A stretch of DNA of 64,000 nt. Source: Candidatus Saccharimonadota bacterium (lineage in GTDB: Bacteria > Patescibacteriota > Saccharimonadia > Saccharimonadales > Saccharimonadaceae). The notes beneath the pieces were generated by a model. The model saw nothing but the letters and a program-made list of their open reading frames with translations. It was not told the DNA's origin and ran no database searches. The position numbers and the translations under genes are program-made. This document shows, one piece after another, positions 6,990 through 27,197 of the stretch. The stretch spans positions 1-64,000 of the forward strand of contig JAECRG010000003.1 of NCBI GenBank assembly GCA_015999875.1, read 5' to 3'. Each line of letters opens with the position of its first letter. The first letter of the stretch is position 1.

Positions 6990-9900
6990 CTAGCGAAATT
7001 TAACCGATACTTCATCATCGGCCACTTGAGCCGCACGCGGACTTATACTCTGCGGGGATGACGCTACGGGCTGCGCAGATAGCTGCTGAGGCACCGCTGC
7101 GTCAATAGTCGATACAGATTGCGATTGGAGCTGCTGAGGCTGAGAAAAAGCGGGATAAGCGCTCTGAGGCTGAGACTGCATCAGCTGTTGCTGCGGAATA
7201 TTCGACATCTGGGGTTGTCCCGGAGACTGTTGCTGTGGGACAAACCCACCAGAAGCATACTGTTGGGGCTGCTGGATGGGCATTCCAGGCTGAGAGCCAG
7301 GGTTAAACACAGGAGCTGGACTAGCTTGCGTGACCGACTGCTGCCCTGCACCAGGCATGCCCGGCGCACCAAACTGTTGTGGCTGACCTGGTTGACGCAC
7401 CACGCCCGGCCGTCCCGCACCTGCCTGTTGACGCTTCGCAAGCCATTCGTCAAGAAATGAACCCCCGGGCTTCTGAGCCCCTGGCGCGCCAATTCGATTG
7501 CCCGTCGGAGGTCCACCAGGACCGACGATAGCTGCCGGCTTACTAGCGATACGCTTTGCTATATCAATCTCCACTTCAGCGCGTGGGCGTCCATGTTTCG
7601 TAGCAGAAAGCTTCTTCATCGCATCAGCCAATTTCTCATTGGATTTAGCGAGCGGCGGAGTAAACGACATACTGAATGGTGCCGAAGGAGTATTGCTAAT
7701 CATTACGCTAGTGATTCCCTGGAAGTTTGGAAGCTTAGTCAGGTCATCTTCCGTGAACACTGGACGAAACTTCTTAATCATCACTTCGGCATCGGTCGTG
7801 CCAATACGACCCGATACAACAGTACCGACGTTACCGATAATCGCTTCTCTGATTTTGTCTGTCAGTTGCGTCGTAAACTGGTTGGCCATAATTAGACTCA
7901 AACGATACTTTCGAGCCTCTGACAAAATAGACTCAAAACTCTCAGTCATAAAGTTCTGGAACTCATCAACATACAAACTAAAATCTTGACGCTGGTCTTC
8001 GGGAGTGTCGGCGCGCGCCATTGCTGCTGCCTGAAATTTCATCACAAAGATAATACCAAGTAATTTCGAGTTCATCTCACCCATCTTGCCCTTAGAAAGG
8101 TTTACAATCAGAATCTTCTTATTATCCATGATGTCGCGCAGATTAAACCCGCTCTTTGTCTGGCCGATAATATTGCGCATTGCATCGTTGGAGAGGAAAG
8201 GACCAAACTTTGATGCCACCCAGCTTACGAGCTCACCAGCTTCGCTTGATTTCTGAGACGCTGGCCACTCTTTAGTCCAAAACTCTAGTACGGTTGGGTC
8301 TGTCACGTATTTCAGCTTACTCTTCATAAACTCAGTGTCAACGAGCACCTTCGGAATATCGATGAACGTACCGCCTTCTGGATCAGCCATCAACAGTAAC
8401 GCTGCATTGCGAAAAATATGCTCCAAGCGAGGGCCCACAATACCCGTATGCCCCGGGTCATACAATCCGTAGAGCATATTAATCGCCTCCTGCACCAAAA
8501 AGTCTTTTTGGTCTGGTGTGCTGTACTCAAACATGTTGAGTCCGATAGGATTGTCCATATCTGCTGGATTGAAATAAATTATGTCTTCAACACGTTCTTT
8601 TGGTACCGCACCCATGAGCACTTCCGCCGAGTCACCATGTGGGTCAATAAATGCAAAACCTTTACCGTCCATCATGTCTTGGTACGCAAGGTTCTCTAGG
8701 AACTTAGATTTACCAGTACCAGTCTGACCAATCATATACACGTGACGACGTCGATCATTTGTACTCAGGCGAATTGGCTTTTTGATACCACGAAATTCGT
8801 TATAACCAATCAAGAAACCTTCGTCCATTATGTCCGTCGGCCCATCTACCTGTTTACTCATCTGGCGTTTCACTTGGGCAGTTGGTATATTCTTTTGATC
8901 CGGTAAATGAAACAACGTTGCAAGTTCTATGGTGTTGAGGATATTACTACGTAAGCTTTGGGGGAAGAATCGGAAAATAAAAGAAGTAACCAGTTCGTCT
9001 ACATTGCGGGTTGGCGTAAATGTAAAACCATTGTTTGACGGAGAATCAAAAAGAGAGAATGCCGCCACTACATTTTTCAGTAGCGTCTGAGAACGTACGG
9101 CTGTAGATGAAGATACAACAACTCGTATTAACACCTCATAGCCTGGGTACCGCGTCTTCTCTTCGACAGCGTCAATCCCCTGTTGCTCCAGTGATGTCAA
9201 TTGTCGCTCCACCCCTTTTTCCTCAGAATGATCATCGGCGGATGGCGGCTTCCAGAGAGCCGCAGCCAAATCTTTAGCCCCACCAATCCCTAGCTTCGAA
9301 GAGTGCTTGCCTGTCGCACGATCTTTTTTCGTTTGCTCTACTGTATGGATCGAACTCTTTATCCAGCCTTCACTCGCCGGGCGCATCAGTATCTGTATAC
9401 CCACGCCGTCTTCACGACCAATCGTAGACAAAGCGTTTAGTATCGCACGTGATGCATCTCGTTTTGTGTCCTGGTAGGTGGCGATGGGATACACATAGCT
9501 TTTCTTGAGACCAAACTCTCCCCCGATAACCGAGCTCATGCTAGTATCTTTCGTGAATATATTGTGTTCTTCAACCTCTTCAAGCCGCGCCGACGGGTAC
9601 GCCGCAATCACCGCCTGACGCACAACATCGACCAAGACCACAGGGACTACTGTGTAGTAATATATGAGCCCCTCTTTAGCTATTATTTCAAACGAAATAT
9701 GTCGCTGACCATAAATACGATGCTTAAAGCCTCGCTGAGCTGTACTTGCAATAATGTTATACATCACTTGCGCTTGTGATAGAAGCTCATCAGTTACTTC
9801 ACGCTCATCTCGCCCTCCGCGATCTAAATCCTCGCTGGTAGGTGGTAAATGAATCATCATCGGGATCATCTTAAGGCCACGCTCGTAATTCTTCGCCTCT

Positions 9901-20380: not shown

Positions 20381-21259
20381 TCACGAATTAGCACTCTCGA
20401 CGAGTAGCTCGGACAAATAGTGTTCAGCTTCAACGAGAGGCTTCCATTGGATAAACTTATTTCTTTTGAGCCACGTAAGTTGACGCTTCGCAAGTCGCCA
20501 GTCAAGTATTACAAATCTCTGCTGTAATTCCATCATCGATAGTTCTTTGTCCAAATACCGACGAACAAGCGGATAGATATTTCCAGTCATAGCTTCACTA
20601 TCCCATCCATATCTTTTGCCCAACATTATTGATTCCTCTACAACACCATTTTCAAATAATTGTTCAGCTCTGTGCTCAATTCTTGTTCGAAGTAAGTCTC
20701 TGTCTGTTGATATCCCTACAATAACACTTGTGCTTATTGGATCACTTCTTCTCCTACCATTCTTACCACGCCGCTCTATTGCACGAATAATATGACGTTT
20801 ATTTTTATCATTTTCCGGTAGCTTTATGTTGTTATCAAAACAATATTCGTGAAGCTCTTCAATCGATAACACATCGAGTCTCTGGCGCTCTGAATCATCA
20901 GCAACACTTCCAAATTCGTAATCAAATACAACACCGTCGACATACAGCCCAGTGCCGCCCACAAGAAATGGCACATGACCACGCGCACGAATCTCAGCGA
21001 TCTTTGCGAGCGCATAACGCTTAAAATCAGCTGCGGTAAATCGCTCACCCGGCGAAACGACGTCCAACCCCCAGTGGGGCACCAGTGCGCGTTCCGCAGA
21101 AGTGGGCTTTGCGGTACCGACATCCATATCCCGATATACAGTACGACTATCCGCACAAATAATTTCACCCTGATACTTTCGAGCAAGCTTAATCGCAAGT
21201 GAGGTTTTACCACTTGCCGTAGGTCCAACGATAACGACTAAAGGAAGCTTGGTCGCCAT
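20381..21259 (-). CDS. miaA: tRNA dimethylallyltransferase
   Basis: A 292-residue enzyme that adds dimethylallyl to A37 of tRNAs reading UNN codons. The P-loop GPTASGKTSLAIKLA is at the N-terminus, followed by ADSRTVYRDMDVGTAKPT, PHWGLDVVSPGERFTAADF and GGTGLYVDGVVFDYEF, all family landmarks. Slightly shorter than typical (about 300-310). It ends in TGA and overlaps the ATL gene upstream by 22 nt, inside an operon-like run with the ATL, HAD and thrS genes. Confidence 0.95.
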   Translation of the reverse strand: MATKLPLVVIVGPTASGKTSLAIKLARKYQGEIICADSRTVYRDMDVGTAKPTSAERALVPHWGLDVVSPGERFTAADFKRYALAKIAEIRARGHVPFLVGGTGLYVDGVVFDYEFGSVADDSERQRLDVLSIEELHEYCFDNNIKLPENDKNKRHIIRAIERRGKNGRRRSDPISTSVIVGISTDRDLLRTRIEHRAEQLFENGVVEESIMLGKRYGWDSEAMTGNIYPLVRRYLDKELSMMELQQRFVILDWRLAKRQLTWLKRNKFIQWKPLVEAEHYLSELLVESANS

Positions 21260-21552
21260 CTGAGTTCCTCGAACTTATCAATTATTTGATTCGTACAGGT
21301 TATACCGTCGTGTAGCAATAGCTGCTCTTGTACTTCCCGGCCACCAGGAAACCCGGCGGCAAGCCCGCCGAAACGATTTACAAGCCTATGCCAAGGTAGA
21401 TTGGGATTGCCATAATGTGCGATACCTCCAACAATCCGACTAGCATGAGCGCTCCCCGCCATCGCTGCCACATCCCCATAAGTGGTGACTAGCCCTTCCG
21501 GCAGTTGCGAAATTATACGTTCCACCTCCACACGAAATTGCCCGTCAGCCAT
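21238..21552 (-). CDS. Alkyltransferase-like protein (ATL, MGMT fold)
   Basis: A 104-residue protein with the DNA-binding half of O6-methylguanine methyltransferase: EGLVTTYGDVAAMAG, RIVGGIAHYGNPNLPWHRLVN. The active-site PCHR is replaced by PWHR, with Trp for the alkyl-accepting Cys. That is the mark of ATL proteins, which bind O6-alkylguanine and hand it to nucleotide excision repair. It overlaps miaA by 22 nt and the HAD gene by 8 nt. Confidence 0.88.
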   Translation of the reverse strand: MADGQFRVEVERIISQLPEGLVTTYGDVAAMAGSAHASRIVGGIAHYGNPNLPWHRLVNRFGGLAAGFPGGREVQEQLLLHDGITCTNQIIDKFEELRWRPSFL

Positions 21553-22147
21553 AGAGTACCTCCACTAGCTCGCCCCAAGTACGACATTGTTTAACTGGCG
21601 CAGTCGCACCGTGATGCCACCCATATCTGCCAAATAATATCGCATCAACACCTTCATCAAGCGCAGTTTGACAATGTGATGCATTATCATCCACTAATAG
21701 CTGGACACCCAGCTCCTTACAGAGACGCCCTTTTGTTTTAGCTTTTTCGTCTACATGACTCGTGCAAAAGTAAAGCTGGATATCTTCAGCGCCAAAATGA
21801 TGCGCAAACCATTCTCGCGTTGCGCCCTCGCAAGATGGATCCCGTGAGGTAACCAGTAATACTTCTGCATCACGCGCGAGACGATGAACCGCGACCTGCG
21901 CCCCTTCTATAAGTGACACATGCGATTGATCAATAGCCATCTGCTGATTCAACTGTTTGAAGCTAAGCTGATCGGCAACTCCGTGTTGACGCCAAACTCT
22001 CTCATAATAACCCCAGTACTCACCAGGAGTCCTGTAGTCGTCCTGCGTAAGATTAGCTCCCAACTGACTATTTACCACCCTACGCAGTGCCTCAGTGGTG
22101 TCAGCAATCGTATCGTCAATATCAAGGGCTATACGAGTATATTGCAT
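21545..22147 (-). CDS. HAD-family 5' nucleotidase-like protein
   Basis: A 200-residue HAD phosphatase. Motif I is ALDIDDTIADTTEALR, motif II EVLLVTSRDPS, and the acidic motif QLLVDDNASHCQTALDEGVDAILFG. This fits the 5'(3')-deoxyribonucleotidase / NT5C-like group. It probably removes phosphate from nucleoside monophosphates. It starts 1 nt after the thrS stop and overlaps the ATL gene at its end. Confidence 0.8.
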   Translation of the reverse strand: MQYTRIALDIDDTIADTTEALRRVVNSQLGANLTQDDYRTPGEYWGYYERVWRQHGVADQLSFKQLNQQMAIDQSHVSLIEGAQVAVHRLARDAEVLLVTSRDPSCEGATREWFAHHFGAEDIQLYFCTSHVDEKAKTKGRLCKELGVQLLVDDNASHCQTALDEGVDAILFGRYGWHHGATAPVKQCRTWGELVEVLYG

Positions 22148-22148
22148 A

Positions 22149-23960
22149 CTAAAGACCCCTAAGATACTCGCTCAGCTGACTTAGGGCTATCTTCCCCTCA
22201 CCGGACTGTGTGCGCACACTCACCTCTCGTGCTTCTTGATCTTTTGGCCCGACAATTAGCTGCACGGGAATTTTCCACTGAGCTGCTTCACGAATTTTTT
22301 TACCTAGACTCTCGTTTCGATCATCTGTTGTAAAACGTACCTCGTTAAATTTAACAGGCTTATCAAGCGCTACATCAGATAGAATCGTTTTAATTTCCTC
22401 AACATAATCCATGACAGTATCATTGATGGTCAAGATACGCACCTGCTCTGGAGCAGCCCACACAGGAAACCAGCCAGCCGTATGTTCGATAAATACACTC
22501 AAAAAGCGCTCAATTGATCCGAGTAGCGCGCAGTGAATCATCACAGGTGTTTGCGGGTTACTCTCGGCGTCCGTGTACTGCAGACCGAATCGACCAGGTT
22601 GCACAAAATCTAGCTGCGCTGTTGCCAACTGGTGTTCGCGACCGATAGCATCGGTCGCCATAAAATCTATCTTCGGGCCATAAAAAGCAGCTTCGCCGTC
22701 TTGCTCGAAATATTCAAGATCGTTTGCAATCACCGCACTCTTTAGCTGTGACTGTGCAGATTCCCATAGCTCATTATCACCGAGATACCCGTCGCCACTA
22801 TCCCGATAGCTCAATCGCACACGAAGTTTCATGCCAAGCGTTCCGTAAAGTTCTTTCACACTAGCGAGAAGGCCGTTTATCTCCTCTTCAATCTGGTCGT
22901 GACGACAAAATACATGGCTATCATCTTGAGTAAGCGACCGAACACGATTAAGGCCGCCAAGTTCACCGGTTTTTTCATCACGATAGTCTGTAGTTGTCTC
23001 GAGATATCTTACTGGCATATCTTTGTAACTCCTCGGCCTACTCGCAAAGATTTGCGTATGATGCGGACAATTCATCGGCTTAAGCGCCATTTTATCATCC
23101 GTCTCTTGACTAGCTACGAGAAAAAGCTCGTCACCAAACTTATCCCAGTGACCAGATGCCTCGTATAATGAAGTCTTAGTAATGTGTGGTGTCCATACCT
23201 TCTCAAACCCGCGCGCCTGGCGAAGCTGGTTTGAATACTGAGCCAACACGTCTCGCAAAACTGTCCCTCGAGGAGTAAACATAGGTAGACCAGCTCCTAC
23301 AAGCTGCGAGGTCGTATAGAGATCAAGTTCTTTGCCTAGCTTACGATGGTCACGTAATTTTGCCTGCTCGAGATTCTCAAGGTATTGATCCAGCTCTTCC
23401 TGGGTAGCAAACGCGACGCCATACAGCCGCTGCATTTGCGGATTGTTCTCATTACCACGCCAATACGCACCAGCAACACGGAGTAATTTAAATACGCCTA
23501 CGTCTTTGGTGTTTGCTACGTGTGGACCCCGACACAGATCAGTAAAAATACCATTCTTGTAGAAGGAGACATTCTCGACAGCCGCATCACCATCAGTGGC
23601 AAGTCCCAGCTCACTAACATCTAAATCCTTGGCGATAGTCGTGCCACTTCGCTTAAGATCGTTTAAGAGCTCTTCTTTATATGGCTGGTTATTTTCTTTT
23701 GCCCAGTCGATCGCCTGGTCTATCGGCATTTCGAATCGTTCAAAATCATCGCCATATTCGATGATGCCGCGCATCGTTTTCTCTATCTTGGCAAAATTTG
23801 CTTCTGATATCTTACGCTCTCCCAGATCAATATCGTAGTAAAAGCCATTTTCCACTACCGGACCCACGCCAAACTTTGCTTCCGGCCATAGTCGCTTTAC
23901 AGCCGCCGCAGTGATGTGCGCAAGACTGTGTCGCATTGCGTATAATTGTTCATTTTTCAT
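22149..23960 (-). CDS. thrS: Threonyl-tRNA synthetase without TGS domain
   Basis: A 603-residue ThrRS that charges tRNA-Thr. It starts at MKNEQLYAMRHSLAHITAAA, so the N-terminal TGS domain of about 60 residues is missing. The editing domain is complete: HSLAH at the start and TDLCRGPH later provide the zinc-like ligands. The catalytic core shows MNCPHH, RVRSLTQDDSHVFCR and MIHCALLGSIERF, which supply the Cys/His/His zinc site. The anticodon-binding domain ends the protein. GAGGTAAAAT precedes the ATG. A T-box-like leader and terminator lie upstream. Confidence 0.96.
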   Translation of the reverse strand: MKNEQLYAMRHSLAHITAAAVKRLWPEAKFGVGPVVENGFYYDIDLGERKISEANFAKIEKTMRGIIEYGDDFERFEMPIDQAIDWAKENNQPYKEELLNDLKRSGTTIAKDLDVSELGLATDGDAAVENVSFYKNGIFTDLCRGPHVANTKDVGVFKLLRVAGAYWRGNENNPQMQRLYGVAFATQEELDQYLENLEQAKLRDHRKLGKELDLYTTSQLVGAGLPMFTPRGTVLRDVLAQYSNQLRQARGFEKVWTPHITKTSLYEASGHWDKFGDELFLVASQETDDKMALKPMNCPHHTQIFASRPRSYKDMPVRYLETTTDYRDEKTGELGGLNRVRSLTQDDSHVFCRHDQIEEEINGLLASVKELYGTLGMKLRVRLSYRDSGDGYLGDNELWESAQSQLKSAVIANDLEYFEQDGEAAFYGPKIDFMATDAIGREHQLATAQLDFVQPGRFGLQYTDAESNPQTPVMIHCALLGSIERFLSVFIEHTAGWFPVWAAPEQVRILTINDTVMDYVEEIKTILSDVALDKPVKFNEVRFTTDDRNESLGKKIREAAQWKIPVQLIVGPKDQEAREVSVRTQSGEGKIALSQLSEYLRGL

Positions 23961-26149: not shown

Positions 26150-26440
26150 ATGACAAAGAAAACCACCAAAGAAGAATTCAAAGTAAGCGGCGACGCCCTA
26201 CTAGGTAAAGTTAAAGAAATTATCAACGAAGGAAATGTCCGTCGCATAATAATTAAAAACAAGGATGGCAAACAGCTTATCGAGCTGCCACTAACCATAG
26301 GAGTAGTTGGTGCTGTACTTGCACCAGTTCTCGCGGCCGTAGGTGCAATTGCCGCTCTTGTAACAGAGTGTAGTATTATTGTTGAGCGTGAGGTTGAAGA
26401 ATCGACTTCTGACGCGAAACAAACGCCTTCATCAAAATAA
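26150..26440 (+). CDS. DUF4342 domain protein
   Basis: A 96-residue protein matching DUF4342: KEEFKVSGDALLGKVKEIIN, the signature NVRRIIIKNKDGKQLIELPL, then a hydrophobic segment at about 48-72 (TIGVVGAVLAPVLAAVGAIA) and a charged tail. The function of the family is unknown. The ATG follows TATACT by 6 nt with no ribosome site, so the message is probably leaderless. It is followed 10 nt later by the CIRCE operator of the small RNA candidate, which may be its 3' neighbour by chance. Confidence 0.85.
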   Translation: MTKKTTKEEFKVSGDALLGKVKEIINEGNVRRIIIKNKDGKQLIELPLTIGVVGAVLAPVLAAVGAIAALVTECSIIVEREVEESTSDAKQTPSSK

Positions 26441-26450
26441 TTACCCATAG

Positions 26451-26477
26451 TTGGCACTCTTGACTTAGGAGTGCTAA
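26451..26477. promoter_or_regulatory. CIRCE operator (HrcA binding site)
   Basis: TTGGCACTC, 9 nt, GAGTGCTAA. It matches the CIRCE consensus TTAGCACTC-N9-GAGTGCTAA at 17 of 18 positions (G for A at position 3 of the left arm). HrcA binds this to repress heat-shock promoters until heat stress. It overlaps the -35 box of the promoter at 26460-26488, the right place to block it. No heat-shock protein gene follows. Confidence 0.88.
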
Positions 26478-26488
26478 TTATCTACACT
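26460..26488 (+). promoter_or_regulatory. Promoter inside the CIRCE element
   Basis: TTGACT (26460-26465) in the CIRCE spacer, 17 nt, TACACT (26483-26488). The predicted start, 26495, is exactly the first base of a 10-bp RNA stem. Confidence 0.75.
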
Positions 26489-26494
26489 AGATAT

Positions 26495-26584
26495 ATAGGC
26501 GGCGTTCGCCCACTCACCCCACACCTGCGAGGCGCCGTCTATCCCCCCTGAATATTCGACAGTAATTATGCTGTCGTTTTTTTT
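26495..26584 (+). ncRNA. Candidate heat-shock-controlled small RNA, about 90 nt
   Basis: From the predicted start the RNA folds at once. ATAGGCGGCG (26495-26504) pairs with CGCCGTCTAT (26533-26542) over 10 bp with one G-U. TCGC/GCGA extends it, leaving the C-rich loop CCACTCACCCCACACCT. A single-stranded CCCCCC (26543-26548) follows. A perfect terminator stem CGACAG/CTGTCG with eight T residues ends it. There is no ATG, GTG or TTG that could open a frame before the terminator. C-rich loops of this kind pair with G-rich ribosome sites in Gram-positive small RNAs. The terminator overlaps the last codons of the convergent gene at 26566. Confidence 0.65.
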
Positions 26585-26934
26585 CTTTCGTTAAGTCGCA
26601 CTACTAGCAGTACAAGCCCTGTGACAAACGATATGGGGCCGATGACAACACTCGAGGACCCAATCAGAAACAGTACTACATTGAAAATAGTCGTGAAAAC
26701 ATTCTGACTGACAAACAATGCATCATCGCTTCCGCTCGTAGCCTCCTGCGAGGATTGCCCCGCCAGATATGCCATGGTTGCATAGAGCAATATCGCAATC
26801 ACAAAAGCGACCGCAGGCCATACCATGAGAATTAGCGGCACTTTAATGCTCGCCTCCTTGGTATTCGTGTAAGATGTGGCTGCCGGCTCTCTGTTCAATG
26901 TTGGCGGACTATATGCTGGTTGTTGATCATTCAT
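26566..26934 (-). CDS. Two-helix membrane protein of unknown function
   Basis: A 122-residue protein: a Pro/Tyr/Asn-rich N-terminus of about 30 residues, a hydrophobic segment at 31-54, a short outside loop rich in Ser/Gln, and a second segment at about 84-113 with a basic end. No family is recognised. The last codons, including the AAAAAA for Lys-Lys, lie within the terminator of the convergent small RNA. A weak TAGGCT box 6 nt before the ATG might give a leaderless message. Confidence 0.65.
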   Translation of the reverse strand: MNDQQPAYSPPTLNREPAATSYTNTKEASIKVPLILMVWPAVAFVIAILLYATMAYLAGQSSQEATSGSDDALFVSQNVFTTIFNVVLFLIGSSSVVIGPISFVTGLVLLVVRLNERKKTTA

Positions 26935-27045: not shown

Positions 27046-27074
27046 TTGACAAAGTAAAGAGCTTATGCTATATT
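27046..27074 (+). promoter_or_regulatory. Consensus promoter of the 38-codon ORF
   Basis: TTGACA (27046-27051), 17 nt, TATATT (27069-27074). The expected start falls on the A of the ATG at 27081. Confidence 0.8.
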
Positions 27075-27080
27075 GTAAAC

Positions 27081-27197
27081 ATGGCTAACGGAAAAGTAAC
27101 GAAACAAACACACAAGCCATCTGCGCTTGCCAACTTCAAACTCGGCTTTGAGTACGATTTGACGTGGGCTGAAGTGCATAAACAACTCAAAAAATAG
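27081..27197 (+). CDS. Small protein of 38 residues, probably leaderless
   Basis: A short ORF reading MANGKVTKQTHKPSALANF and ending VHKQLKK. It has a near-consensus promoter whose start would be the ATG itself, and a strong terminator 28 nt after the stop, so it is a complete single-gene unit. The protein is basic with a short amphipathic C-terminus (YDLTWAEVHKQLKK). No family is recognised. It might instead be a small RNA with a chance frame, but the codon use looks normal. Confidence 0.6.
   Translation: MANGKVTKQTHKPSALANFKLGFEYDLTWAEVHKQLKK

What the first reader, a model, noticed from the sequence alone, without database searches (positions are those of the whole stretch)
26451..26584. 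A CIRCE operator drives a tiny structured RNA, not a chaperone gene
Seen: CIRCE (17 of 18 consensus bases) with TTGACT-N17-TACACT inside it. The predicted start 26495 is the first base of a 10-bp stem. The RNA carries a C-rich loop and a free CCCCCC, then a perfect terminator, in 90 nt with no usable start codon. Known: HrcA binds CIRCE to control groEL/dnaK. Inferred: a heat-shock-induced small RNA that pairs through C-rich stretches with G-rich ribosome sites. I know of no such RNA in this phylum.
Basis: partly seen in the sequence, partly recalled or inferred. Interest (0 to 1): 0.88.

Follow-up and report, generated by a model that had tools for sequence, protein, structure and literature searches.

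The report
Heat-shock RNA outliving its lost gene
A short RNA under the heat-shock switch HrcA, in a tiny host-dependent bacterium, turns out to be the control leader of a chaperone gene (clpB) that is gone here but still follows the same leader in a sister species, and the leader has been kept nearly unchanged on its own, which suggests it gained a job of its own.

Summary
In detail: a CIRCE (17/18) with a promoter inside it, a 48-nt hairpin starting at the predicted +1, a free CCCCCC and a terminator, with no gene. hrcA is present in the genome. In the same slot of one congeneric genome (G003) the same CIRCE, promoter and hairpin form the 5' leader of clpB. In another (G001) they are again gene-less and end in a different terminator. 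The window genome, G001 and G002 have no clpB. The hairpin was found in no other genus of 394 family genomes, although clpB leaders elsewhere in the family nearly always start with a CIRCE. Synonymous sites between these species are nearly saturated (~36% identity), yet the hairpin arms are 28/30 identical between the two gene-less copies. This argues that the leader was kept by selection after clpB was lost, as a stand-alone HrcA-controlled RNA. Its trans-acting mechanism (C-run pairing with G-rich ribosome-binding sites) stays inferred. ftsZ, with CAGGGGG as its ribosome site, is the best candidate, found post hoc. Transcription has not been tested.

The parts
26451..26477 (.). CIRCE operator (HrcA site), 17 of 18 consensus bases
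   Evidence: Pattern match, 0.01 expected by chance; same element at the same spacing in G001 and G003
26460..26465 (+). -35 hexamer TTGACT inside the CIRCE spacer
   Evidence: Sequence; promoter scan. A TTGAC in the CIRCE spacer is the common layout in this group
26483..26488 (+). -10 hexamer TACACT, 17 nt after the -35
   Evidence: Sequence; promoter scan; TATACT in G001 and TACACT in G003 at the same position
26495..26542 (+). Leader hairpin: 11-bp stem, one bulged G, 4-bp inner stem (26506-26509 with 26527-26530)
   Evidence: Fold z = -5.7; arms conserved in G001 and G003; three stem differences, each keeping a pair through G-U
26510..26526 (+). C-rich loop CCACTCACCCCACACCT
   Evidence: Fold; C-rich loop of variable length also in G001 and G003
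26521..26534 (+). Near-invariant 3' part of the loop and arm (ACACCTGCGAGGCG; ACCTGCGAGGCG identical in three species)
   Evidence: Alignment
26543..26548 (+). Single-stranded C-run CCCCCC, followed by TG
   Evidence: Fold; CTATCCCCC(C)TG shared by G000 and G001; CTAATTCCCTAG at this spot in G003, just before the clpB SD
26557..26584 (+). Intrinsic terminator (8-bp stem, 4-nt loop, 8 T)
   Evidence: Terminator scan. G001 has an unrelated terminator sequence at the same place; G003 has clpB instead
26150..26440 (+). Upstream DUF4342 gene, same direction, no terminator of its own before the CIRCE; the 26557 terminator may serve it too
   Evidence: Pfam PF14242; present at this spot in G000 and G001 only
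26566..26934 (-). Convergent small membrane protein; its relative in G003 lies directly after clpB, which marks the clpB slot
   Evidence: tblastn, 35% identity, same order

Best explanation
The element is the HrcA-controlled promoter and structured 5' leader of clpB, kept after clpB itself was lost from this lineage and closed off by an intrinsic terminator, so that it would make a roughly 90-nt stand-alone RNA. Shown: homology and synteny with the clpB leader of G003, absence of clpB here, and conservation far above neutral sites. Inferred: HrcA represses the promoter in normal conditions and heat releases it. Inferred: the RNA is stable because its 5' end lies in the stem. Inferred: it acts in trans through its unpaired C-rich segments (loop and CCCCCC) on G-rich ribosome-binding sites, chemistry like that of RoxS.
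For: Same CIRCE, -35, -10 and hairpin, with the same 18-nt spacing from CIRCE to stem, as the leader of clpB in G003. The slot matches: thrS ... [clpB] ... membrane protein (G000, G003), s38, nrdR, glycosyltransferase. G001 is gene-less like the window, with a terminator of unrelated sequence. No clpB in G000, G001 or G002. In the family 23 of 394 genomes hold clpB; of 21 leaders read, 20 carry a strict CIRCE and the other a degenerate one, so the CIRCE belongs to clpB. G003 branches first among the four species, with 95-97% support, which favours loss of clpB in the others. Four-fold sites are ~36% identical while the hairpin arms are 28/30 identical between the two gene-less copies (P 7e-11 under the neutral rate). 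Among the promoter-bearing CIRCE sites examined, the two without a chaperone, protease or hrcA gene are the window's and G001's.
Against: No transcript data. Only three homologues are known, so covariation is limited to G-U exchanges. The topology of G000, G001 and G002 is weak (70-79%), so separate losses of clpB in G000 and G001 are possible, which would shorten the time the RNA stood alone. G002 lacks the element altogether, so it is dispensable there. The different terminators of G000 and G001 could mean separate events. The pairing mechanism has no independent proof.
Confidence: 0.68

Rival explanations
1. Relic: clpB was deleted and its promoter and leader simply have not yet decayed; the RNA, if made, does nothing.
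For: Small genomes lose genes one by one; G002 lost the whole element. Separate recent losses of clpB in G000 and G001 are not excluded by the weak tree.
Against: Four-fold sites between G000 and G001 are ~36% identical while operator, -10 box, stem, 12-nt loop/arm motif and C-run persist in both, and each copy ends in a good terminator. A free-running relic would be unrecognisable if the loss is as old as their split.
Confidence: 0.17
2. DNA-level role only: the CIRCE is kept as an HrcA binding site (a decoy that tunes free HrcA, or a roadblock between DUF4342 and its terminator); the RNA is incidental.
For: The CIRCE is well preserved. DUF4342 ends directly before it without its own terminator and shares the 26557 terminator.
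Against: Does not explain why the -10 box, the hairpin and the C-run downstream are conserved.
Confidence: 0.07
3. Reverse order: an HrcA-controlled small RNA came first, and clpB was later inserted behind it in G003.
For: The hairpin is known only in this genus; clpB is patchy in the family (23 of 394) and its other leaders lack this hairpin.
Against: Nearly every clpB in the family already comes with its own CIRCE promoter, so the CIRCE here is most simply the clpB one. Insertion would have to remove a terminator and place an SD 27 nt behind the hairpin. G003 branches first.
Confidence: 0.08

Closest known systems
HrcA/CIRCE heat-shock regulon (groESL, dnaK, clp genes)
   Same: Same operator, promoter overlapping the operator, hrcA present; the other five CIRCE sites of this genome precede hrcA, dnaK, dnaJ, clpC and clpP.
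   Different: No protein gene follows; the regulated product would be a roughly 90-nt RNA.
clpB 5' leader of sister genome G003
   Same: Homologous CIRCE, -10 box, spacing, hairpin and C-rich loop, same genomic slot.
   Different: In G003 a clpB SD and gene follow within 27 nt; here a C-run and a terminator follow.
RoxS/RsaE-type C-rich small RNAs of Firmicutes
   Same: Short structured RNA with unpaired C-rich regions that could pair with G-rich ribosome sites; in B. subtilis RoxS binds SD sequences (PMC5419742).
   Different: No sequence homology (no Rfam match), different regulator, targets unproven.
UTR-derived small RNAs and conserved spacers of reduced genomes (e.g. Buchnera, PMC3164680)
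   Same: Functional non-coding pieces kept while genes around them are lost.
   Different: Here the piece is the regulated leader of a specific lost chaperone gene, with its operator.

Membership tests
HrcA/CIRCE regulon | CIRCE inverted repeat TTAGCACTC-N9-GAGTGCTAA at a promoter | tested here: met
   17/18, promoter inside
HrcA/CIRCE regulon | hrcA in the same genome | tested here: met
   PF01628 hit above cut-off
HrcA/CIRCE regulon | HrcA binds the site and represses; heat relieves | not testable with these tools
   Needs protein binding and expression assays
HrcA/CIRCE regulon | Controls a chaperone or protease gene | tested here: not met
   No gene between CIRCE and terminator in G000 or G001; met in G003 (clpB)
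clpB leader (G003 type) | Sequence and structure homology | tested here: met
   CM bits 73 here against 70 in G003 (by construction); BLASTN E 3e-15 before any model
clpB leader (G003 type) | Same genomic slot | tested here: met
Trans-acting base-pairing small RNA | Own promoter, structured RNA, own terminator, no ORF | tested here: met
   Predicted from sequence in two species; transcription itself untested
Trans-acting base-pairing small RNA | Pairing with targets supported by coevolution or experiment | tested here: inconclusive
   ftsZ SD complementary; each tail pairs best with its own species' ftsZ, but G002 keeps the ftsZ site without the RNA
RNA thermometer (SD sequestered by the leader) | SD paired more than chance in clpB leaders | tested here: not met
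   SD pairing no higher than in shuffled leaders; the window copy has no SD at all
Known Rfam families | Match at gathering score | tested here: not met

The most novel reading that the evidence does not exclude
A heat-shock small RNA under HrcA that arose when clpB was deleted from its own regulated leader: the leftover leader became a trans-acting RNA whose freed C-run blocks G-rich ribosome sites such as that of ftsZ, pausing division during heat stress.
Probability: 0.2. Interest if true: 0.85.

Novelty: new variant of a known kind. Interest (0 to 1): 0.62.

Why it matters
If made, it would be an HrcA-controlled RNA gene without a protein; none turned up in the papers searched here. It would also give a before/after pair of how a regulatory RNA can be born: gene with leader in one species, leader alone in two others. 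It would open post-transcriptional control in Saccharibacteria, where the searches found no described small RNA, to a direct test.

Tried and rejected
Weak covariance-model hits outside the genus and in G002 (E 7e-5 to 0.09) lie inside coding sequences and were rejected. A genome contigs pattern scan gave 19 stretches; the only Saccharibacteria hit matches the G003 contig in length, the others are unrelated phyla. RNA thermometer in clpB leaders: several have UCCCCUUU facing AAAGGAGGA, but SD pairing is no higher than with shuffled leaders. Rfam at permissive threshold: nothing near a gathering score.

Full report
OBSERVATION. CIRCE 26451-26477 differs from the consensus at one of 18 positions and is the only match in the window, against 0.01 expected. 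TTGACT 26460-26465 and TACACT 26483-26488 are 17 nt apart. From 26495 the RNA folds into an 11-bp stem, a bulged G and a 4-bp inner stem closed by a 17-nt C-rich loop, then CCCCCC, then an 8-bp terminator with 8 T. The fold is far better than shuffles (z -5.7). No ORF of 30 aa or more lies on this strand between the CIRCE and the terminator. Rfam gives nothing. hrcA is in the genome.

THE CIRCE SITES OF THIS GENOME. Six sites with both inner arms intact exist in the assembly. The other five precede clpP, clpC, dnaJ, dnaK and hrcA, judged from the proteins that follow. Among the promoter-bearing CIRCE sites read from relatives, nearly all are followed by hrcA, dnaK, dnaJ, clpC, clpB, clpP or hsp20; the two with no such gene are the window's and that of G001. 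The script also lists sites on the non-promoter strand, which are not meaningful.

RELATIVES. BLASTN with the 146-nt unit gave two matches covering the hairpin, both in the same genus: G001 (E 2.5e-17) and G003 (E 3.4e-15); all other matches cover the CIRCE or short stretches only. In G001 the unit stands in the same place after DUF4342 and ends in a terminator whose sequence is unrelated to the window's. In G003 the same CIRCE, -10 box and hairpin are followed by AAGGAGG-N6-ATG and a 714-aa ORF that scores 1111 bits against ClpB, TIGR03346. It begins at profile position 143, so it lacks the N-terminal domain and stays below the curated cut-off of 1232; Pfam finds the AAA domains and the ClpB D2-small domain. 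The spacing from CIRCE to stem is the same 18 nt in all three.

SYNTENY. Between thrS and nrdR the order is: window, FAD oxidoreductase(-), DUF4342(+), CIRCE-hairpin-terminator, membrane protein(-), s38(+), nrdR. G001 is the same without the membrane protein. G003 has a PH-type gene and a tRNA, CIRCE-hairpin-clpB, membrane protein(-), s38, nrdR. G002 has thrS followed by s38 after about 650 bp, without CIRCE or hairpin. clpB in G003 thus sits exactly where the window has only a C-run and a terminator. Full-length clpB-like hits are absent from G000, G001 and G002.

WHO CAME FIRST. In 394 family genomes 23 have clpB at E 1e-200. Of 21 leaders that could be read, 20 carry a strict CIRCE and one a degenerate one. 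The hairpin itself was found only in this genus (other hits are coding). A tree of 23 concatenated families places G003 first among the four species (95-97%), with G000, G001 and G002 weakly resolved (70-79%) and thrS giving a conflicting signal. The simplest account is CIRCE-hairpin-clpB in the genus ancestor, loss of clpB in the other lineage, and loss of the leader in G002. The reverse, clpB inserted behind an sRNA, is less simple but not excluded.

SELECTION. Four-fold degenerate sites between these species are 33-40% identical, close to saturation. The hairpin arms (30 aligned positions) are 28/30 identical between the two gene-less copies and 27/30 to G003; the chance of 28/30 at 36% is 7e-11. 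The positions were chosen after seeing the alignment, so this P is optimistic, but the contrast is large. The three stem differences all keep a pair by G-U exchange; there is no double change, so covariation support is modest. Downstream of the C-run the next stretch that aligns between G000 and G001 starts near the small ORF s38.

MECHANISM. Shown: homology, synteny, gene absence, conservation. Inferred: HrcA repression and heat release, from established knowledge of HrcA/CIRCE. Inferred: a stand-alone RNA acting in trans. In G003 the bases after the hairpin (AAUUCCCUAG) can pair with the clpB SD, and the gene-less copies have CUAUCCCCC(C)UG there; but SD pairing in clpB leaders is no greater than in shuffles, so a thermometer origin is not supported. 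A scan for CAGGGGG before ATG in G000 gave six sites. Two are the starts of an ftsZ-like gene and an atpD-like gene (identified by reading the translations), a third lies before a GNAT-like ORF, and the rest are not starts of long ORFs. The ftsZ ribosome site is CCAGGGGGAG in G000, G001 and G002 and CUAGGGGGAG in G003. Each species' RNA tail pairs best with its own ftsZ, and G003 shows a matching C-G to U-A change. This is suggestive, post hoc, and weakened by G002, which keeps the ftsZ site without the RNA.

NOVELTY. The library searches showed no HrcA-controlled small RNA and no small RNA described for Saccharibacteria; titles, abstracts and a few passages were read, not every paper, and most subscription papers are not held. 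The parts are known kinds. The combination, a CIRCE-controlled leader kept after its chaperone gene was lost, is a new variant.

LIMITS.

Noticed in passing
window 27046-27194: A 38-aa ORF (MANGKVTKQTHKPSALANFKLGFEYDLTWAEVHKQLKK) with a strong promoter (TTGACA-17-TATATT) precedes nrdR in all four genus members and has relatives in two other genera (G010, G008). It has no Pfam match, and its DNA is unusually conserved (four-fold sites 71% in G000-G001, few sites).
   Followed up: partly
G000 C1:22620 (locus L187) and C3:584416 (locus L195): Ribosome sites of the ftsZ-like and atpD-like genes read CAGGGGGAG, complementary to the free CCCCCUG of the RNA; the ftsZ site is conserved in the genus.
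   Followed up: partly
dnaK leaders, e.g. locus L069 around 1545: A second, degenerate CIRCE-like repeat (TTGGCAATC-N9-GAGTGCTAA) follows the first CIRCE in the dnaK leaders of this genus.
   Followed up: no
window 22149-23960: thrS and its neighbour at 21241-21564 give a different species grouping (G000 with G002, G001 with G003) from most nearby genes, which suggests recombination.
   Followed up: partly
locus L080 about 7130-7480: In G003 the 3' end of a tRNA (GAATTCCTCCGCGTCCACCA) and a terminator-like ATCATATGAT stretch are repeated between the tRNA and the clpB CIRCE.
   Followed up: no
loci L168, L169, L170, L173: Long clpB leaders of other genera carry UAUCCCC(UUU) and later GRGGCGAUA or GAGGCUA, loosely like the C-rich loop and GCGAGGCG of this genus; homology not established.
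   Followed up: partly
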